Below are positions 4 to 17,194 of a DNA stretch of 64,000 bases, piece after piece (the first letter of the stretch is position 1; every line of letters starts with the position of its first letter). The DNA lies in assembly GCF_006335145.1 (NCBI RefSeq), contig NZ_VDMN01000001.1:1736001-1800000 (forward strand), in the 5' to 3' direction. Origin of the DNA: Aliirhizobium smilacinae. Lineage in GTDB: Bacteria > Pseudomonadota > Alphaproteobacteria > Rhizobiales > Rhizobiaceae. The notes beneath the pieces are model-generated. The model was given only the letters and a program-made list of their open reading frames with translations, was not told where the DNA came from and did not search any database. The translations under genes were made by a program, and so were the position numbers.

Positions 4-2169
4 TTGATTGATGCAGGAGTGCCAAAGGAGATTTTTGTCGGCCGAGAAGACCTCACGCGCGGTATCGAGCTCGATATCTTATCCGCTCCGACGCAGGTGG
101 GCACGCCTTTGCAACATCTCATCTTGGCTGGTATTCCCGGGATGGGACGAACCTCTGTCGCGCGAAGCGTTGTGAACACCTCATTTTCTGGCATGAGACC
201 CGCGGGACCAGTCTTCGACCTGCCGGATATGGCTGAAGCAGCAGATATTCACCTGCGCTTGATGGAGGATCTTGATGGCGCTCTGTCTAAACAAGAGATC
301 GAACGGCAGCTGTCAGCTTTCCAACGTTTGGGCCCCGAAGAGCAGGCCTCGATGGTTTTGAGGTCGTTGAGTCATTGGGCTAAGTTAAACCAAGTTGTAG
401 TGCTACGAACCAGATGGGGTCTTAGGGATCGTAGCAGGAACTTGAAGCCTTGGCTCGAAGCCCTTTTCCGGCTTTCCACTGAGGTTCGAAATCTTCGTCT
501 TGTTTATATTTCGGAACGGAAGCTGCCCGCGGAGATACTGGCGCACGTCAAAAGCGCTCGCCAGTATGAGGTCACCGACTTATCCGAGCAAAATATCCAA
601 TACATTCTGAGCAAAAAAACCAACAGTCGGTACTTTGACATGGATTCGGCTGTAGCGATTTCCAAGAAAATACGAGGACATCCTGCGACGGCTCACCATG
701 TAGCGTTTCTCACGAACAGTGGCTTAAGCCTGAATTCTATGGATCTTAATCCCGAGCCGATCTACGCATTCCAAGATAAAACGTTAGACGCGATATTCTC
801 AAGTGGGATACTTGAGCCGATCCAGAAAAAAATACTCACTATCTTAGGGTGGTTTCCGAAGCTTCCTTTAAACCTGCTCACTGAGTTGATCGGTTCGAAT
901 GATCGCAAAAACCTAGTAGATAAAGTTTGGGACTTGCTTGATTATTCGCTTATTCAACTGGGAGAAGGAGGGAATTATAGCGTTCCTGAGGTGGTAGCAG
1001 CCAGAATTCGTCGTGATTCCGATATGGATTCGGCCTCGCTTTTCACCGCCGTCCGTAAGTTGATAGAGGCCAGGATCAAAGCTGGACATCTGGAGGCGGA
1101 CCTAATCGACGCCCTAATTATCGCAGTCGTGAACTTGGAGGGAGTCATACCCGAAGAGCTACGTTCTGTTCTTACAGGGTCGAATCTTCTTAGCCTTGTA
1201 ACAGAGCAGTTTCAGACCGCAAAAACCTTACCCAAGAAGCAAACCGAGGCGTTTCGGCGTGTTTACACTCTTTCTAAGATGGCGATAGGAATGAGGACGT
1301 CGGATGATGCCGTTGAGCAAATATTGTTCACAGGGGGCGATGCTGCGATCCGAGGAGGCATATACCCGGAGGACATTATCAGCTTTATGTCGGAGAAAGC
1401 GCTTCCCTCTGTCTACTACCTGATCGGAAGTCACGCGTTTTACATTGAAAAGGATTACGGGAAGGCTGCTAAAAACCTGTCTACCTCGCTTAGACTGAAA
1501 CATTTTAGGAACAGGAATGTTCGGCTGTTGGCGAAAGCATACATTAGAGATCAAAAGTTCTCAGCGGCGAAAGAGGCCTTAGACAAAATCCCCGATTTCC
1601 AGTTGTTTCGTGACACAGGCCTCCTCGTCCTGAAAATCAGATCCTTACGCGGCATGAGAAGTTTCAAAGAGGCTCAAGACCTCGAAAAGCAGCTCGATGT
1701 CGCTCCCGACGTTTTCGCTGAAAAATCTATCTACTTAGCGGGCCGCGCTTTTCGGGAAAACGATTTTCCCACGGCAAGAAAATATATCCTTGCTGCGAAA
1801 GCTTCCCCTAAGGGCAGCCGTCTTAGTATTGCCCTGCTAGAGTGCGCAATTGCCATTGAAGAGGGCGACCTAAGCCTTCTCGCCGAAACTGTCGAACTCG
1901 CCTTGGCTGCCGGTCGGCATTATGACGCGTGGCAAATGCAGGCTCGTACTGCAATAAAAAAGCGCGACTGGGGCGAGGCTTTAGCTCTGCTATCTCGGAT
2001 TGATCGCAAGGATTATTTCGATCTTCATCTCGAAAGCCGAGCGCTGCAAATAAAGAAAGAAGAGGCTGACATCGCTCGCGATCCTGCGGCGTTGGCCGAA
2101 ATCGACGCGCGGATTGAAGCTATACTTGTGGCGGGATATAAAACAATTGATGGTTATCGCGACGTGTAG
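4..2169 (+). CDS. STAND-like P-loop NTPase with TPR-type C-terminus, 5'-truncated by window edge
   Basis: Open from the first bases of the window, so the true N-terminus is probably missing; the TTG at position 4 is only the first possible start. Visible residues 8-14 (KEIFVGR) are the usual entry to a STAND/NACHT-type NTPase, which in known proteins often follows an effector domain such as TIR or a protease. Residues 43-50 (GIPGMGRT) form the Walker A loop, but the invariant Lys is Arg. I see no clear acidic Walker B, so ATP hydrolysis may be weak or lost. From about residue 400 the protein is helical with TPR/SEL1-like periodicity (for example AFYIEKDYGKAAKNL). This fits a sensor arm. Base composition is A+T-rich compared with the chromosome. 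By analogy with STAND anti-phage proteins it could be a defence sensor, but the effector part is not visible. Function is inference. Confidence 0.6.
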   Translation: MIDAGVPKEIFVGREDLTRGIELDILSAPTQVGTPLQHLILAGIPGMGRTSVARSVVNTSFSGMRPAGPVFDLPDMAEAADIHLRLMEDLDGALSKQEIERQLSAFQRLGPEEQASMVLRSLSHWAKLNQVVVLRTRWGLRDRSRNLKPWLEALFRLSTEVRNLRLVYISERKLPAEILAHVKSARQYEVTDLSEQNIQYILSKKTNSRYFDMDSAVAISKKIRGHPATAHHVAFLTNSGLSLNSMDLNPEPIYAFQDKTLDAIFSSGILEPIQKKILTILGWFPKLPLNLLTELIGSNDRKNLVDKVWDLLDYSLIQLGEGGNYSVPEVVAARIRRDSDMDSASLFTAVRKLIEARIKAGHLEADLIDALIIAVVNLEGVIPEELRSVLTGSNLLSLVTEQFQTAKTLPKKQTEAFRRVYTLSKMAIGMRTSDDAVEQILFTGGDAAIRGGIYPEDIISFMSEKALPSVYYLIGSHAFYIEKDYGKAAKNLSTSLRLKHFRNRNVRLLAKAYIRDQKFSAAKEALDKIPDFQLFRDTGLLVLKIRSLRGMRSFKEAQDLEKQLDVAPDVFAEKSIYLAGRAFRENDFPTARKYILAAKASPKGSRLSIALLECAIAIEEGDLSLLAETVELALAAGRHYDAWQMQARTAIKKRDWGEALALLSRIDRKDYFDLHLESRALQIKKEEADIARDPAALAEIDARIEAILVAGYKTIDGYRDV

Positions 2170-2896: not shown

Positions 2897-4396
2897 TTAT
2901 TTCATAAAATATGCGAAAAATGGTGATGCTATCGCCGAGAGAAGCAAAAATGAAACCGTGAATATATTGTCAGTTAACATTCTTGCCCCACTAGTTGTGT
3001 AGGCTTCGGCCCAAGACCTGAAATACGGAAGGCAAATCCAAACAACGGTACATATATATATAATTATCGTGAGGAATATTGACGACAGGGCGGTAGGCAA
3101 CACAGGTATCATCAATTGGTTTTCGAAGTTATAGGAAAGCAATGAGCTAATGCCCGCCGTGCTCCACGCACTCATCGCAACGCCTTTCACGCAGTCTGCA
3201 TCACTTAGCATCAGAAACGCGGATCGGTCGACCTTCTTGACCGGTCGGCCGTCGCACACATAAACGACTTCGCCTTTGGCCTCCCGAACCAAGCCACTTA
3301 GAAAGCCGGTGTAGGTGATTTCATTCTCGTCGACCGTCTTGGCTTGGAGTGAAACCGCCTTTGCAAAGTCACCGCCGAAAAAGTTAATGTCCTGCATAAT
3401 CGAGCTATAGCTCGTCAAAAATGACCAGCCGGAGAGCTGTGAACGCCCCTCAATAAAGAAGCTGAAGCCACCATTGCCAAACAAGTCGCTAGCCGCTTCA
3501 TTGACACGGGCCTCCGTAATCCCCGGACTTGCCTCAATTAGTGCCGAAATCGAACTCGCAATCTCAGCCGCCGTTAAATCACCCCTTGTGAAGAGAAGAC
3601 TTCCACCCGCCGAAGGCATTTTCCCATCTATGGCTCGTTCGATTGTCGCCTCTGAGGCTTTAGCCGAGACAAATAGCCTTGGGTTACTATAGATCCAGCC
3701 ACTTTCCCCGATCGCTAAAGCTTCTTTACCAAGTTCATTTTCCGACTCATCTGGACGCTCCACACGGGGAGCAGCCAGCATTATTATCTCGCTCAAGCTC
3801 ATCTGTTGCCGCTGCACGCTCTCCAACAAAACAATACTTATTTTTGCGTCATGAGGGACCGTAGCTACTCTGTGCGAAACATACAGAAACACCGGAAGAA
3901 AAATTAACACCAAGAATAAGGACACTACTACATCAGCAACAGCTAAGAATATAACTTCGACAGGATTTTTACAGTAAGCTATCAATCTAGAGAATGTGAC
4001 TGTTTGGAAAAATGATATAGCATCAACCAATACGAACGATATAACTACAAAAACAGAGAACGGCCTCAGGGAAATTATACTCACCAAAAATGGCAACGTA
4101 TGCTTGTCAAATTCTTCATTGCTAAAAAAATACTGAGCGGAGTAGACAAAGAATATCGACACAAACCCAATGATACACAGCCTAATCAACCGGCGCAGAA
4201 AACCTCTTCCCAACGCAGCGGCCAGCAATGCGTTAAACAGGGAGACGCGTTCGGACACCGTCTGATGGCCGGAGCCGAAGATATAAATCGACAGCCTCTC
4301 TTTTAATTCTGCCTTTAGGATTCGGTCAAGAAAGTGAGCCACGGCAAGCGGACTGGCCAGCCCGACCACTGCCAGCAAGTGGAGTACTGTTTCCAC
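2897..4396 (-). CDS. multi-span membrane protein coupled to the retron RT; putative effector
   Basis: A 499-residue protein I do not recognise. It has about six hydrophobic segments: near residues 1-22, 70-92, 112-130, 148-174, 432-456 and 478-497. A soluble region of about 250 residues lies between segments four and five. The start is GTG at 4396 with AGGGAG about nine bases upstream. It begins only 13 bases after the RT-TOPRIM stop codon, on the same strand, so the two genes are almost certainly co-transcribed and probably translationally coupled. Some known retrons (for example Ec48) use small two-helix membrane effectors that act by damaging the inner membrane; this one is far larger and of different layout. 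A role as effector, or as membrane anchor or sensor for the RT, is inference. Its A+T-rich base use matches the RT gene and not the chromosome. Confidence 0.65.
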   Translation of the reverse strand: METVLHLLAVVGLASPLAVAHFLDRILKAELKERLSIYIFGSGHQTVSERVSLFNALLAAALGRGFLRRLIRLCIIGFVSIFFVYSAQYFFSNEEFDKHTLPFLVSIISLRPFSVFVVISFVLVDAISFFQTVTFSRLIAYCKNPVEVIFLAVADVVVSLFLVLIFLPVFLYVSHRVATVPHDAKISIVLLESVQRQQMSLSEIIMLAAPRVERPDESENELGKEALAIGESGWIYSNPRLFVSAKASEATIERAIDGKMPSAGGSLLFTRGDLTAAEIASSISALIEASPGITEARVNEAASDLFGNGGFSFFIEGRSQLSGWSFLTSYSSIMQDINFFGGDFAKAVSLQAKTVDENEITYTGFLSGLVREAKGEVVYVCDGRPVKKVDRSAFLMLSDADCVKGVAMSAWSTAGISSLLSYNFENQLMIPVLPTALSSIFLTIIIYICTVVWICLPYFRSWAEAYTTSGARMLTDNIFTVSFLLLSAIASPFFAYFMK

Positions 4397-4409: not shown

Positions 4410-6293
4410 CTAGGGCACAGAGTTTAGTTTAGAATCGTAGTCGATAATTGCGCCCTCAATCGCGGCAAGTAGAGGCACGAAACCCGCCCAATCAATCGTC
4501 GTGCGCTTCGGACGAACAATTTGACCAACCAAATCAGCTTTGCCGAAATGCGTCGCGCTATCGAAGTCGTTATCTTTCGAAAATTTTCTTCCCCCGATGT
4601 CTTGTGCTGACAACCAAGCCGAATCGAAGAGGTCCTCGATAGCTGAGCTTGACGCGGAACTACCGAAGGGGATCTTTATTATATAAAGATTTGAAACAAG
4701 GTGATAAAAAGCAGCAGTGGTCTTTAAGTCTTTCTTCCACCTGTTCCCAGCAACACTAAGCACCGCGCGACCTTCATCATCATTGTCCACCACGATAATA
4801 ACTGGATGCCTTGGGATAGTCTTAAACGGCTCCATAATTTTCGTGTATTCAGTAATGAATGGTTTCAGATTGGAGGCCCCCTCTCCTATCTGGTAGAATT
4901 TTCGCTTGTCCGTATGCTTGTAGAAGCTCGCCTTAACCTCACCGTCGCCTCCGGCATCGAAAAGCGTTGGAAATAACGCACCCAAACTCTTTATGGCTGC
5001 ACTTATATAAAGCCCGTCGGTAATGCCTTCTCCGACAATTACGGGCTTCTCCATGCCGTGAAACGAACGGTAGTTCAGTAAATGTCGATACAATGTAGTA
5101 AACGATTTCTGCTGCTTGCAGAATTCGGCTTCACGTTCGCGAAATGCTACTGGCTGCTGTTTTTTTGGAAGATAGTCGATAGAAACTTTAAGTCGGCTGC
5201 GCCGTATTGAATAGATAAAGTCCATCCTTCCTTGAAGTTTGTAAGCCGGGAAGCGATGCCACTCTCCGTTTATTTTTTCATGACAAGTGCCCCCAGTGAA
5301 AAGGTGGTCGCACATGCTGCGAGCAAGCTTATAGTAGGTCGCAGACACATTGACGGCCTGATTCACAGTCAGGCCAGTGACATCTTGCCTCGATTTTGGA
5401 AGCTGCATTCGACTCTTGTCGTGATTGATCCGAAAGCCGGAGGCATAGACGCGGCCGACCAAACCATCACCAGCGACCCAACGGTCTGTGGTCCCTGAGA
5501 CAAGTCGAGCAATTGCAGGAGAGAATGCTTTCTCGTTCGTGGAGAAAGTTAAGTCGTCAGCGTATCGTGTGTAGCTGCAGTTCCCATTTGCGGCCAATTT
5601 ATTTAGCTGAACATCAAGAATGTGGCCGATGAAATTGGAGATAACGGGTGAGGTTGGAGCACCTTGCGGCAACTGATTTCGAAAACACACGAGTTGCGCA
5701 ATCATCGTCGCGATTGCTGGATCAAGCTTGAAATTCTGGTCGGCAACAAAAAATGCTCTGACTCTACCGAAGCTAATCGATGGAAAGAAATCTTCCAGAT
5801 CGGCGTTGAACACATAGCGTTTTTTAACGTGAACCGTAGCGTTGGTAGTAATACTGTATTTATCTTTGAAACCATGAGCTAAAACGCAGCTAGAAGGGTG
5901 CGAGCCATCAAATGCCGGATCGATCCGGCGCTGCTCTAGGTCGTTGTAGATTTCGGACAGCAGCCTTGCTAGCTTTCCCTGAATTCGCTTCAACCCGTCT
6001 TTAGGAGCAGTTATATGCCGCCACCCGCCATTTTTTTTAGGAATTTGGTAGTCAACATACTTCTGATGCGGTGCCGCCTTGTACAGCCAAAAGCTGAGAA
6101 CCTTGGTTTGCTCCTTTAGCACTGCGGCCAATTGATCCAAGGACTTTACGTTTCTGAGTCTAGAGACCGACTGCGTGACTATAGGTGGCAAGGCTCGCGG
6201 ATACTCGTTGGCGACCGTCAGGTGACGATAGGATTTTACAGTATAGCGGTCCGTACTGTATTCAGCATTGACCGTAACGGCGTAGTCAACCAT
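4410..6293 (-). CDS. retron-type reverse transcriptase with C-terminal TOPRIM domain
   Basis: A 627-residue protein with all hallmarks of a retron RT. In order: an N-terminal helical region; IPKKNGGWRHITAP near 84-97 (RT motif 1); NATVH at 151-155, the retron-specific NAxxH motif; DLEDFFPSI at 165-173 with the first catalytic Asp; QGAPTSPVISN at 210-220; YADD at 244-247, the catalytic pair; and VTG at 305-307, the retron VTG motif used in template recognition. The C-terminal 200 residues carry a TOPRIM fold signature: GEGITDG near 421-427 (catalytic Glu) and DNDDEG at 503-508 (the DxD pair). This is the domain order of retron Ec67-type proteins, in which the TOPRIM nuclease is the fused effector. 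It heads a two-gene operon with the membrane protein. A candidate ncRNA lies directly upstream. It should make msDNA, and anti-phage function is expected by family. Confidence 0.9.
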   Translation of the reverse strand: MVDYAVTVNAEYSTDRYTVKSYRHLTVANEYPRALPPIVTQSVSRLRNVKSLDQLAAVLKEQTKVLSFWLYKAAPHQKYVDYQIPKKNGGWRHITAPKDGLKRIQGKLARLLSEIYNDLEQRRIDPAFDGSHPSSCVLAHGFKDKYSITTNATVHVKKRYVFNADLEDFFPSISFGRVRAFFVADQNFKLDPAIATMIAQLVCFRNQLPQGAPTSPVISNFIGHILDVQLNKLAANGNCSYTRYADDLTFSTNEKAFSPAIARLVSGTTDRWVAGDGLVGRVYASGFRINHDKSRMQLPKSRQDVTGLTVNQAVNVSATYYKLARSMCDHLFTGGTCHEKINGEWHRFPAYKLQGRMDFIYSIRRSRLKVSIDYLPKKQQPVAFREREAEFCKQQKSFTTLYRHLLNYRSFHGMEKPVIVGEGITDGLYISAAIKSLGALFPTLFDAGGDGEVKASFYKHTDKRKFYQIGEGASNLKPFITEYTKIMEPFKTIPRHPVIIVVDNDDEGRAVLSVAGNRWKKDLKTTAAFYHLVSNLYIIKIPFGSSASSSAIEDLFDSAWLSAQDIGGRKFSKDNDFDSATHFGKADLVGQIVRPKRTTIDWAGFVPLLAAIEGAIIDYDSKLNSVP

Positions 6294-6301
6294 CGCGAAA
6301 C

Positions 6302-6564
6302 ACGACAGAAAAATCTATCCGCGAGCAGAAGGGAAATTTGCTGAGTCGGAATCATCCGTCAATTGCATTTTTCAACGCACGGGCGAGCATGCGTAGATTT
6401 TCGGCTACGTGTTGTCCGCCTCGATAAAATCTGCTGACGCCTTAAGAACAGTGTACCCACCGGAAGGCCACCCTGCGGATCGGAGTGGGTTTTACGAGGT
6501 ATGTTGGTTAGGCAGCAACGGGGCAAGGAGTAAGGAAATCTAGCTAATCCTTGTTATCTGTCGT
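6302..6564 (-). ncRNA. candidate retron msr-msd ncRNA (boundaries tentative)
   Basis: Retron ncRNAs lie just upstream of the RT gene and are closed by an inverted repeat, a1/a2. Here the RNA strand has ACGACAGA (6564-6557) and its exact complement TCTGTCGT (6309-6302), the latter ending eight bases before the RT start codon. The enclosed length, 263 nt, is plausible for an msr-msd. TTAGC, the context around the branching G in retron Ec86, occurs ten bases inside a1 (6547-6543). Between the repeats are three possible hairpins: 6455-6490 (6-bp ends), 6392-6409 (5 bp) and 6364-6379 (6 bp closed by a GAAA tetraloop). No long msd stem is obvious by eye. The 8-bp repeat could arise by chance at the few-percent level in windows of this size. 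It also overlaps a possible integrase scrap. Confidence 0.4.
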
Positions 6565-6657
6565 CGCAGAACTAGATCGTTGATCGTCAAGCAGGTCTGC
6601 CCACCATTGCACCTTCGTCTCCAGCTGCTGGTGCTTTTTCGCCAACGATGGACCCAG
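6544..6657 (-). pseudogene. scrap of a tyrosine-integrase C-terminus
   Basis: A 37-codon open stretch with no start codon, bounded by a stop at 6658-6660 and ending in TAG at 6544-6546. It contains VQWWADLLDDQR. The intact integrase at 8049-9245 ends with MQWWADMLDEAR, so the two share Q-W-W-A-D, L-D and R in register near the C-terminus. This suggests a relic of a second, earlier P4-type integrase. The segment is short and the match could be chance. Confidence 0.35.
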
Positions 6658-6894
6658 CTAGCAGCCTTCGGGCCCCTCTCAACGGCATATGGTGCTGATG
6701 CGGGCGTGGTTAGGGCCGGGAGGACGTTTCTGTTAAATCTTTTGATAAACAAACCCGTTGAGGGATCACGGGCAGGCAGATTTCTCAAAGTCTAAAATTA
6801 TGCATCAGAGCTTTTTCGGGCAAAACCAGCTTTCTTGAATTAACCCGGTTGCAACTTAATGGAGATATAGAGAGGTTGTTATCGGGAGCGTTGT
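6658..6894 (-). other. intergenic stretch with no convincing gene
   Basis: Short open frames exist on both strands but show no family resemblance, no good ribosome binding site and no sensible composition. The part next to 6895 is A+T-rich and should contain the promoter of the PAP2 gene. More integrase remnant could be present in other frames but I cannot support it. Confidence 0.3.
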
Positions 6895-7827
6895 ATGCAA
6901 ATCCTCCGAAATCCGCGCCACTTCCTCTTGGCCATTACGGTTTTTTCTTACGTATCCATTTATGGCTTGGCATTGGCTGTCGGCTTCAAGATCGATGTGC
7001 GGGATAGTCTGCAGAGTATAATCGGGATCGCCCTCATTACTGCCTCCCTCAGTCTGCTGGCATCAAGATTGCAGATGCAGGCACTACGCGCAGTAGCTGA
7101 ATGTGTGGGGTGTGGTTTACTGCTGATTGCGCCCATCGCGCTGTCGACATATCTGGCTATAGGAACAAACCTTCCTCTGGCAGATGCGCAGCTCGCTGCT
7201 TGGGATCGCATGCTCGGTATCGAGTGGGTCACTTTGATGCGATGGATTGATGAGCGCGACTTGCTGTCACAATTTCTCAACTGGGCTTATCGGACATTCT
7301 CGTATCAGCTTCTACTCTGGCCGGTAGTCCTGATCCTTTGCAACAGAGTCGAGCGAGCCTATCAAATGGTAAGCGCATATGCTGTGCTGTGCCTCGCCTC
7401 CAGTGCGATGTCGATTTTGTGGCCAGCGGTGGGGACCTACACATATTACGGCTTCGATGCAGATAGCCTTGCTAATATAGATCGCACCTACGGCTATTAT
7501 TTTCTCGACCAGTTTCATGCTGTCCGGGATAACCCGAACTTTGTGTGGAGGCTCGCGGAAAGCGTCGGCATTCTCACATTTCCGTCAGTCCATGCAGGCG
7601 TTGCTGTGCTGTGTGCGTGGGCGATGTGGGAGGTGCGCTTTTTCCGCTATCCGGTTCTTATGATTAACATAGGCATGGCAATTTCGGCGGTTCCAGACGC
7701 AAACCACTATGTGGTCGATGTGATAATGGGCTGTTGCGTAGCGTTGTACGCTGTTGCTTTTGTGGTCATGATGACGAGACGCAGATCGGCACCTGTTCTT
7801 CATTATGCCCGGATTGATGCTCGATAA
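6895..7827 (+). CDS. PAP2-family membrane phosphatase/phosphotransferase
   Basis: A 310-residue integral membrane protein with about six to seven hydrophobic helices. Two PAP2 active-site blocks are visible: FPSVHAGVAV (the PSxH motif) near residue 230 and ANHYVVDVIMG (the HxxxD motif) near residue 265. GTYTYYG near 180 resembles the AUR1/inositolphosphotransferase branch (PAP2_3). Family members hydrolyse or transfer phosphate between lipid or polyprenyl phosphates at the outer face of the membrane. It sits alone between the retron and the integrase, divergent from the RT, and could be cargo of the island. No partner gene hints at the substrate. Confidence 0.8.
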   Translation: MQILRNPRHFLLAITVFSYVSIYGLALAVGFKIDVRDSLQSIIGIALITASLSLLASRLQMQALRAVAECVGCGLLLIAPIALSTYLAIGTNLPLADAQLAAWDRMLGIEWVTLMRWIDERDLLSQFLNWAYRTFSYQLLLWPVVLILCNRVERAYQMVSAYAVLCLASSAMSILWPAVGTYTYYGFDADSLANIDRTYGYYFLDQFHAVRDNPNFVWRLAESVGILTFPSVHAGVAVLCAWAMWEVRFFRYPVLMINIGMAISAVPDANHYVVDVIMGCCVALYAVAFVVMMTRRRSAPVLHYARIDAR

Positions 7828-8048: not shown

Positions 8049-9245
8049 TCAGTCTGACTTTATAGTGCGCGCTTCGTCGAGCATGTCAGCCCACCACTGC
8101 ATCATCTTCACGCGCTCTTCCCAGTAGGTGGCGCGGTTGTAAACTCGGCGAACCTTGGAACCATCCAGATGCGCGAGTTGGGCCTCGATGGCATCAGGTT
8201 TGAATTCACCCGATTCGTTCAAAATGCTACTCGCGGACGAGCGGAAGCCATGCGCCGTATGCTCATCACCGCCGACCCCCATTCGCCGCAATGCCGAGTT
8301 CATAGAGTTCTCCGAAAGAAGCTTCTTGCCAGACATCATCGACGGGAACACGTAGACGCTCTCGCCGTACAGTTCCTGCATTTGCATGATTACTCCAACC
8401 GCTTGATGTGACAGCGGGATATGATGCTCACGACGCATCTTTGCCTTTGCTGCAGGTATCGTCCAAATAGCACTCTTGAGATCAAGCTCGCCCCACTCCA
8501 TCGAACGCGTTTCTCCGGGACGCGCAAAGCACAGCGCCTGAATCTTCAGCGCTGCCACCAGCGACGGCCAACCTTCGTAGCCGTAAATCGCTCGCATGAC
8601 GCCTCCAAGTTCGCGGCGTGTCGTTAAGGCGGGGTGGCTGGTAGGAACGTGACGCTGAAGCGCACCGCGCAGTGCCGATGTCGGATCCGCCTCGGCCCGC
8701 GCCGTTGCGATGGCGTAGCGGAATACACGCCCAATCGTCGAACGTGTGGCCAACGCGCTTTCGACCCTACCGCTTTTCTCAATGCTGGTGAGTACCGAAA
8801 GAACGTCCTTGGCTGTGATTTGCGTGATCGGGTATGGCGCAATTTTAGCTGCAAGAACCGTCAACATCCACGTATTTTTAGCGATGGTGGGTTCTGCTCG
8901 CCTATCTCGGCGGAGCTTGTCAATGAATTCTTCAGCGATCAGGCCAAACGTGTTGCCAGCAGCCGCCTTTGCTTCTAGTTGCTGCCGCTTCTTCGCGAGC
9001 GACGGGTCATGCCCCTCAGCCAGCTTTCTCTTAGCGTCGTCTTTGCGACCACGTGCCTCGGCGAGCCCCACGGCAGGGTACATGCCAAGCGTTAGGGTCT
9101 TTCGCTTGCCAAAATAAGAGTAGTCAAACCGCCACGACTTGCCGCCTGCCTTGGAAATGAAGAGATAAAGGCCGCCCCCATCTGGCAATTTGCGGGGCGC
9201 ATCTGATGCCTTTGCATTACGTACTTGGATGTCAGTCAAAGCCAT
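8049..9245 (-). CDS. P4-type tyrosine integrase
   Basis: A 398-residue site-specific recombinase. The N-terminus (MALTDIQVRNAKASDAPRKL, then DGGGLYLFIS and KTLTLGMYPAVGLAEAR) is the arm-binding DUF4102 domain typical of P4/CP4-57 integrases. The catalytic residues are visible in RPGETRSMEW (Arg I), HTAHGFRSSAS (HxxR), AHLDGS (His) and VRRVYNRATYW (Tyr nucleophile). Start at 9245 was chosen over a start 33 bases upstream because MALTDIQVRNAK is the family N-terminus. It is transcribed away from tRNA-Gly, 210 bases from the tRNA 3' end, the standard arrangement for an element that uses a tRNA 3' end as attB. Confidence 0.93.
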   Translation of the reverse strand: MALTDIQVRNAKASDAPRKLPDGGGLYLFISKAGGKSWRFDYSYFGKRKTLTLGMYPAVGLAEARGRKDDAKRKLAEGHDPSLAKKRQQLEAKAAAGNTFGLIAEEFIDKLRRDRRAEPTIAKNTWMLTVLAAKIAPYPITQITAKDVLSVLTSIEKSGRVESALATRSTIGRVFRYAIATARAEADPTSALRGALQRHVPTSHPALTTRRELGGVMRAIYGYEGWPSLVAALKIQALCFARPGETRSMEWGELDLKSAIWTIPAAKAKMRREHHIPLSHQAVGVIMQMQELYGESVYVFPSMMSGKKLLSENSMNSALRRMGVGGDEHTAHGFRSSASSILNESGEFKPDAIEAQLAHLDGSKVRRVYNRATYWEERVKMMQWWADMLDEARTIKSD

Positions 9246-9308
9246 TTTACGGTATCGGCCCTCGCACAGCTCGCACAATACCGAGTTTTTTACCGTGAAA
9301 TAGGCTGG

Positions 9309-9431: not shown

Positions 9432-9454
9432 CACAATTGATGGGGAGAGGTAGC

Positions 9455-9528
9455 TGGAGCGGGTGAAGGGAATCGAACCCTCGTATTCAGCTTGGGAAGC
9501 TGCTGCTCTACCATTGAGCTACACCCGC
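9455..9528 (-). tRNA. tRNA-Gly (CCC anticodon)
   Basis: Read on the minus strand: acceptor GCGGGTG pairing CACCCGC, D-arm GCTC/GAGC, anticodon loop TTCCCAA giving CCC, T-arm AGGGTTCGATTCCCT, discriminator T and encoded CCA at 9455-9457. One mismatch at the top of the anticodon stem. The 3' end faces the island, which makes it the likely attachment site. Confidence 0.95.
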
Positions 9529-10699: not shown

Positions 10700-10780
10700 G
10701 ATATTTCTTTCAAATTTTGGCGGTGACAAAACCAAATACAGGCCATTGACGCAAGCAGATGCGAGGCGTAAGCCAGCTTT

Positions 10781-10836
10781 ATCCCGTGGTGATTTGCCGG
10801 TCGGCTTGCAGCCACGTTAAACAAGTGGCTAAAAAG
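10781..10836 (+). promoter_or_regulatory. SAM-II riboswitch
   Basis: The core CCGTGGTGATTTG, then GGCTTGCAGCCACGTTAA, then ACAAGTGGCTAAAAAG reproduces the SAM-II (metA motif) consensus almost base for base. P1 pairs CGTGG with CCACG, and the 3' AAGTGGCT pairs back into the loop as the pseudoknot. It precedes metZ by 63 bases. Binding of S-adenosylmethionine should switch off metZ, the known role of this class in Rhizobiales. Confidence 0.95.
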
Positions 10837-10847
10837 ACCGGGTTGCT

Positions 10848-10879
10848 AAAACCGGTCTGCTTTTGCGGCCGGTTTTTTT
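10848..10879 (+). terminator. intrinsic terminator hairpin in the metZ leader
   Basis: AAAACCGG (10848-10855), one unpaired T, CTGC, loop TTTT, GCGG, then CCGGTTTT and a T run. This is a 12-bp stem with seven Ts. It stands between the SAM-II aptamer and the metZ start. The CCGGTC part can instead pair with GACCGG at 10836-10841, directly 3' of the aptamer, forming a competing hairpin. The pair could be a transcriptional on/off switch. Confidence 0.75.
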
Positions 10880-17039: not shown

Positions 17040-17194
17040 TGCCTGCCGCCTGATCTTGCGCCTTGCGCAAAGCAGCCTTGTCGACCCGAACCTTGCCCGC
17101 GGCAACAGAAACACCTATTTAACAGCTGCGAGGACGACCTCCCCCAGAATGGGTATATGAGCCGGGACGACCCGGATAACCCACGGGGTCCCAC

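What the first reader, a model, noticed from the sequence alone, without database searches (positions are those of the whole stretch)
6302..6564. Putative msr-msd RNA bounded by an 8-bp a1/a2 repeat just upstream of the RT
Exact complementarity of ACGACAGA and TCTGTCGT closes a 263-nt region that ends eight bases before the RT start. A TTAGC motif sits ten bases inside a1, as around the branching G of known retrons. Hairpins include one with a GAAA tetraloop. This is the expected place and size of a retron ncRNA.
Basis: partly seen in the sequence, partly recalled or inferred. Interest (0 to 1): 0.7.

Follow-up and report, generated by a model that had tools for sequence, protein, structure and literature searches.

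The report
Ec67-type retron, its RNA relocated
The region does hold the RNA of a retron, a known bacterial anti-phage system that copies part of its own RNA into DNA, but the real RNA is a 134-base stretch that overlaps the predicted start of the enzyme gene, not the 263-base region that was proposed.

Summary
The gene at 4410-6293 (-) is an Ec67-family (type I-C) retron RT-Toprim fusion. The 8-bp repeat is real (6302-6309/6557-6564), but exact arms of 8 bp or more occur in 323 of 1000 shuffles. The 263 nt fold no better than shuffles (z -0.78) and show no conserved block upstream of 6326. The true msr-msd is 6326-6193 (-), 134 nt, closed by an exact 11-bp a1/a2. A covariance model from 21 homologous RNAs, window left out, hits it at 72.8 bits, E 2e-16; Ec67's own RNA scores 73.4. 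In 34 RNAs 98.9% of cells pair and 16 of 19 pairs covary. The retron sits in a ~19-kb island at tRNA-Gly. It is a new member of a known kind.

The parts
6193..6326 (-). retron ncRNA (msr-msd), 134 nt
   Evidence: Covariance model R1 from 21 homologues without the window: 72.8 bits, E 2e-16 over 64 kb, both strands. RNA fold z -3.74, 0 of 200 shuffles as good.
6316..6326 (-). a1 arm, GCTCGCGGATA
   Evidence: Exact complement of a2, 11 bp; 2 of 1000 shuffles reach 11 bp. The fourth pair is C-G here and T-A in the five closest relatives, changed on both sides.
6315..6315 (-). predicted branching G (2',5' primer), in TAGA
   Evidence: Invariant A-G-A around this column in 21 of 21 homologues; same place as rG15 of Retron-Eco2 in PMC12405507 (Results section read). 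The chemistry is inferred.
   Evidence: 6 of the 7 modelled pairs of this helix show changes on both sides, 97.4% of cells paired, in 34 RNAs, 33 distinct.
6205..6278 (-). msd, predicted template of about 74 nt (alternative end 6266, 62 nt)
   Evidence: 5' start of the DNA opposite the A before GT-a2, end 9 nt past the msr hairpin, both by the geometry of Eco2 (PMC12405507; Ec67 RNA of L108; letters). Inferred; end uncertain.
6193..6203 (-). a2 arm, TATCCGCGAGC
4410..6191 (-). RT-Toprim fusion, 593 aa from TTG 6191 (the mechanical ORF from ATG 6293 gives 627 aa)
   Evidence: padloc RT-Toprim_I-C 1.9e-189 from residue 40; NF038237 retron_Ec67_fus 625.9 bits, cut-off 450, from residue 44; PDB 9lm3 Ec67, E 1e-95, residue 40 aligned to residue 4. 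In 33 of 33 other loci an in-frame start follows a2 (in L099 only 70 nt on). TTG itself is inferred.
   Evidence: Two adjacent pieces in one frame resemble the window's own integrase (14 aa at 79%, 13 aa at 62%; E 0.31 and 0.28). Weak one by one.
8049..9278 (-). tyrosine integrase of the island
   Evidence: Phage_integrase, Phage_int_M and Arm-DNA-bind_3
9455..9474 (.). att repeat: 20 bp at the 3' end of tRNA-Gly, exact second copy at window coordinate -9838
4..2169 (+). 3' part of a TIR-NTPase-TPR gene in the same island, starting left of the window
   Evidence: L094:9988-12669, Pfam TIR_2 1.9e-12, padloc TIR-NLR 7.8e-9 over residues 46-164; the TPR match is below Pfam's cut-off

Best explanation
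A complete type I-C (Ec67/Eco2-family) retron. One transcript of the - strand carries the 134-nt ncRNA and then the RT-Toprim gene. a1 and a2 pair; the RT binds the msr hairpin, primes from the 2'-OH of G6315, and copies the msd from A6205 to about 6278 into a short DNA of about 74 nt whose 5' end is a T. The msDNA holds RT-Toprim in a silent complex. When a phage nuclease damages the msDNA, the Toprim domain is freed, cuts RNA and stops phage growth. Shown here: the RNA's place, pairing and conservation, the protein family and its catalytic residues. Inferred from Retron-Eco2: the joint transcript, priming, DNA ends, silencing, trigger and RNA cleavage.
For: Blind model hit, 72.8 bits; Ec67 itself 73.4 bits with the same model (L108, whose RT residues 41-626 equal Ec67 1-586). 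RT-Toprim loci outside the training set: 12 of 14 hit at E 2e-9 or better, and the odd L053 at 24.6 bits, E 5e-4; of 34 loci in which only the RT part matched the window's protein, 0 hit at E up to 1. 98.9% of cells paired against 79.5% in shuffles and at most 45.2% when slid; 16 of 19 pairs change on both sides (21 of its 34 RNAs trained the model). a1/a2 11 bp. RT and Toprim residues conserved in 19 of 19 usable proteins, 4 of 23 dropped. 7 of 297 family genomes carry the RNA, and these 7 also have a full-length or N-terminal RT-Toprim match.
Against: No msDNA, RNA or phage data. The predicted msDNA alone (75 nt, 6279-6205) folds no better than shuffles as DNA (z -0.72, 52 of 200). No sigma-70-like promoter in 6100-6900 (0 found, 0.8 expected). 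The RT start is a TTG; the only in-frame ATG lies inside the ncRNA. The metal-B serine of Eco2 (S513) is Ala here, but only 2 of 19 have Ser; I could not place the catalytic lysine that PMC12405507 numbers K562, as residue 562 of the chain printed is not Lys. The model misses L101 and L102: L101's RT match covers only residues 209-624, so its 5' part seems lost, and L102 starts at the record's first base.
Confidence: 0.94

Rival explanations
1. One reading: a 263-nt ncRNA at 6564-6302 closed by the 8-bp repeat, branching at TTAGC.
For: The letters are there.
Against: Near chance level, fold no better than shuffles, no conserved block upstream of 6326 in the 5 closest homologues, model silent there; its arms are parts of other features.
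Confidence: 0.01
2. [quoted passage not shown] the same RNA is either translated or reverse-transcribed.
For: The frame is open from 6293, and ATG is as a rule a stronger start than TTG (general knowledge). The RefSeq CDS of Ec67 in L108 also starts inside its ncRNA (CDS 1097, ncRNA 1051-1177). 10 of 34 loci have an in-frame start inside the ncRNA.
Against: 24 of 34 loci have none; in the 33 others an in-frame start follows a2. Family profiles begin at residue 40-44. The Ec67 protein of the solved structures starts 40 codons after L108's annotated start.
Confidence: 0.05
3. A decaying retron: RNA and protein are still recognisable but no msDNA is made or sensed.
For: No ATG after a2, weak DNA fold of the msd, no promoter match, and a lower model score than the 5 closest relatives (72.8 against 95-101; but those 5 trained the model).
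Against: Open frame, checked catalytic residues kept, and a1/a2 exact with a double change against the closest relatives, which speaks for selection on pairing.
Confidence: 0.1

Closest known systems
Retron-Eco2 (Ec67), type I-C, E. coli
   Same: RT-Toprim in one chain (PDB 9lm3 E 1e-95); ncRNA of like length, branch G directly after a1, one msr hairpin, msd of 67 nt there and about 74 here.
   Different: Distant in sequence (324 bits by phmmer against 1325 for Ec67 itself); TTG start directly after a2; in an integrase/tRNA-Gly island here, whereas the Ec67 copy L108 lies beside a phage portal gene.
Type I-C retrons of the closest relatives found (L032, L033, L034, L002, L038)
   Same: Protein 42-52% identical (L038 over its N-terminal part only); similar first 40 nt of the RNA.
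   Different: The window has a different msd, an msr hairpin shorter than in four of the five, and C-G for T-A in a1/a2.
Retron-Eco1 (Ec86), type II
   Different: Stand-alone effector and an extra msr stem-loop according to PMC12405507; padloc II-A scores far lower (1.3e-54 against 1.9e-189).

Membership tests
Retron type I-C (Ec67 family) | Retron RT with intact YADD and retron motifs | tested here: met
   YADD, and N and H of NAxxH, in 19 of 19 usable proteins including the window; window RQDVTGLTVN
Retron type I-C (Ec67 family) | C-terminal Toprim domain with its acidic residues fused to the RT | tested here: met
   padloc RT-Toprim_I-C over residues 40-624; NF038237 above cut-off; counterparts of E374, D378, D460, D462 and E515 and a Lys (546 of the chain) in 19 of 19, S513 counterpart Ala. 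Pfam shows only the RT domain
Retron type I-C (Ec67 family) | Upstream ncRNA with a1/a2, branch G after a1, msr hairpin and msd | tested here: met
Retron type I-C (Ec67 family) | msDNA with a 2',5' branch | not testable with these tools
   needs nucleic acid from cells
Retron type I-C (Ec67 family) | Anti-phage effect by Toprim RNase | not testable with these tools
   reported for Eco2 (PMC12405507)
Retron type with a separate accessory gene | A partner gene kept beside the RT in homologues | tested here: not met
   The adjoining membrane-protein gene 2897-4396 has no match (E up to 0.01) in 12 homologous loci examined, one of which (L063) ends just after its RT, and occurs in 2 of 199 family genomes, own included

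The most novel reading that the evidence does not exclude
The transcript is dual-use: the ATG inside the msr hairpin, or the TTG one base after a2, is opened or closed by a1/a2 pairing and RT binding, so the msDNA precursor controls how much RT-Toprim is made. The open frame through the ncRNA of Ec67 itself (L108) would be the same device.
Probability: 0.06. Interest if true: 0.5.

Novelty: new member of a known kind. Interest (0 to 1): 0.25.

Why it matters
It corrects where the retron RNA is and where its enzyme starts, which decides what one would clone to test defence or to make DNA in cells. It also shows a trap: trusting the first ATG can put the start of an Ec67-type RT inside the ncRNA and hide it, as here and in the RefSeq CDS of Ec67 in L108, which has 40 extra codons. 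The covariance model made here, trained mostly on Alphaproteobacteria, also finds the RNA in gammaproteobacterial and Bacilli loci outside its training set. No Rfam family matched this ncRNA or that of any of ten such loci.

Tried and rejected
Rejected: the 263-nt ncRNA. Rejected: the downstream membrane-protein gene as a retron partner. Led nowhere: Rfam, no retron family in the window or at permissive threshold in 6100-6700; viral contigs, 0 relatives; genome contigs, 1 relative; phage records, 43 with a match but 1 covering at least 80% of the protein; paper search for five terms on type I-C retron RNA in rhizobia, 0 papers; promoter scan. One search stopped on an error in my script after the BLAST table; one search finished it. 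One search picked wrong frames for two of 18 proteins (L002, L055) and was replaced, which used 19 of 23 and dropped L038, L051, L052 and L057 as shorter than 500 aa. L053 was left out of the model because its RNA is far longer. G699, which has an RT-Toprim match and a strong RNA (L036, 110 bits), is not among the hits; it may not have been drawn. A motif in the msd (UCCUU in 12 of 31, 2.8 expected; 2 of 33 dropped as near-duplicates) is not used as evidence, because the sequences are related. Structure prediction was not run, since Ec67 structures exist.

Full report
On the - strand the two 8-base arms, the spacing to the ATG at 6293, TTAGC and the GAAA hairpin are all there. As a signal they are weak. 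Exact arms of 8 bp or more in a comparable layout arise in 8.3% of 3000 dinucleotide shuffles with the 3' arm within 30 nt of the ATG, and in 323 of 1000 under a looser layout. The 263 nt fold at z -0.78.

The enzyme. The ORF 4410-6293 (-) is an Ec67-family RT-Toprim fusion: padloc RT-Toprim_I-C 1.9e-189, NCBIfam retron_Ec67_fus 625.9 bits against a cut-off of 450, PDB 9lm3 and 9i2f 'Retron Ec67 protein' E about 1e-95. These matches begin at residue 40-44; query residue 40 aligns with Ec67 residue 4. The first ~35 residues thus have no counterpart in Ec67. That was the first hint that the ATG at 6293 is not the start.

The RNA. Relatives were gathered from 397 order, 394 family and 385 class genomes, one named contig and four plasmid records. 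I read the DNA upstream of 23 loci, window included. A script found near-perfect arms around the conserved RNA in 21 of 23; for L002 and L053 it chose other pairs and I set the arms by eye. The window's arms are GCTCGCGGATA and TATCCGCGAGC, 6326-6316 and 6203-6193; 11 bp is reached by 2 of 1000 shuffles.

Blind test. I aligned 21 homologous RNAs without the window and without L053. RNAalifold gave 19 pairs, 16 with double changes. The model searched over the whole window hits 6193-6326 (-) with 72.8 bits, E 2e-16; the next hit has 11.3 bits. Over 6100-6700 with filters off, the same stretch read on the other strand gives 12.5 bits and nothing else exceeds 1.5. Control: of 34 loci in which only the RT part matched the window's protein, 0 hit at E up to 1. 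RT-Toprim loci outside the training set: 10 of 12 (misses L101 and L102) and 2 of 2 E. coli loci. The longer L053 gives 24.6 bits. In 297 family genomes the RNA is found in 7, and these 7 also have a full-length or N-terminal RT-Toprim match.

Ec67 as yardstick. The RT of L108 (E. coli NCTC8623) equals the solved Ec67 protein letter for letter over Ec67 residues 1-586. Its RNA scores 73.4 bits with the model, about what the window scores.

Covariation with the window included. In 34 RNAs (33 distinct) 98.9% of cells pair; shuffles give 79.5%, slid structures 27-45%; 16 of 19 pairs have double changes, and all 10 pairs of a1/a2 do. 21 of the 34 trained the model and the alignment is fitted to the structure, so this count leans towards it, made on a MAFFT alignment, was not fitted to a given structure. 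Against the five closest relatives the window itself carries a double change in a1/a2 (T-A to C-G).

'a2' (6309-6302) is, but for its first base, the 5' arm of the msr hairpin CTGTCGTG-TTT-CGCGATGG (6308-6290). The ATG at 6293 lies in its 3' arm. 'a1' and TTAGC lie in, and at the TAG stop of, a reading frame 6651-6544 that reads PSLAKKHQQLETKVQWWADLLDDQRSSSATTDNKD; two pieces resemble the island's own integrase (79% over 14 aa, 62% over 13 aa; E about 0.3 each). I take it as a probable integrase remnant. Upstream of 6326 the alignment with the five closest homologues shows no conserved block.

Start of the enzyme. After a2 the first in-frame start is TTG 6191, giving 593 aa; Ec67 has 586 (PMC6868368, passages seen). 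In 33 of 33 other loci an in-frame ATG, GTG or TTG follows a2, though in L099 only 70 nt on, inside the conserved part; 24 of 34 have no in-frame start inside the ncRNA, 10 have. RefSeq's CDS for Ec67 in L108 begins inside its ncRNA, 40 codons before the start of the solved Ec67 protein.

How it most likely works. Read from PMC12405507 (abstract and the whole Results section): in Eco2 the branch is rG15 directly after a1, then 4 nt, a 23-nt hairpin, 9 nt single strand, and the msd of 67 nt. RT-Toprim and msDNA form a trimer that its authors call self-inhibitory, the Toprim domain has RNase activity, and escaper phages carry denB mutations. Laying this geometry on the window gives branch G6315, hairpin within 6310-6288, msd about 6278-6205, msDNA 5' end TCGTTGGCG. 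By alignment to the relatives' AAT|G the far end could instead be 6266. The catalytic positions checked are kept in 19 of 19 usable proteins, except the S513 counterpart, which varies. Silencing, trigger and RNA cleavage are inferred from Eco2. The predicted msDNA folds weakly as DNA, which I count against full confidence.

Surroundings. The island runs between exact 20-bp repeats at window -9838 and 9455 (tRNA-Gly 3' end). Of six congeneric regions compared, two (L088, L093) keep synteny up to -9940 and -9907 and resume it at 9453 and 9444, a third (L092) stops at -10079, and three do not show the left junction. The integrase is at 8049-9278. The island also carries a TIR-NTPase-TPR gene. The membrane-protein gene just after the RT (4396, RT stop at 4410) was not found beside the homologous retrons; its one other relative in 199 genomes lies next to a different gene.

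Verdict. An ordinary but intact-looking type I-C retron, a new member of a known kind, with the ncRNA and gene start now placed.

Noticed in passing
   Followed up: partly
L108, E. coli NCTC8623: The RefSeq CDS of Ec67 starts inside its own ncRNA (CDS 1097-2977, ncRNA 1051-1177) and has 40 codons more than the solved Ec67 protein, the same start problem as here.
   Followed up: yes
window 4-2169 and 512 bases to the left (L094:9988-12669): TIR-NTPase-TPR gene, TIR-NLR-like, in the same island as the retron: a second likely defence gene.
   Followed up: partly
window 9455-9528 and relatives L088, L093: tRNA-Gly looks like an insertion hotspot: different DNA beside it in congeneric genomes, and second partial copies of the tRNA end about 44-51 kb away in G1164, G684 and G1174.
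   Followed up: partly
msd of 31 type I-C RNAs: UCCUU (AAGGA in the DNA) in 12 of 31 against 2.8 expected in shuffles; relatedness not corrected.
   Followed up: partly
window 2897-4396 (-): Protein of 499 aa with long hydrophobic stretches and no Pfam match, just after the RT; rare, one distant relative (26% identity) in G477, next to a gene that reads like a ribonucleotide reductase (name recalled, no profile run).
   Followed up: partly
window 17126-17175 and 10776-10853: Guanidine-II and SAM_alpha riboswitches.
   Followed up: no
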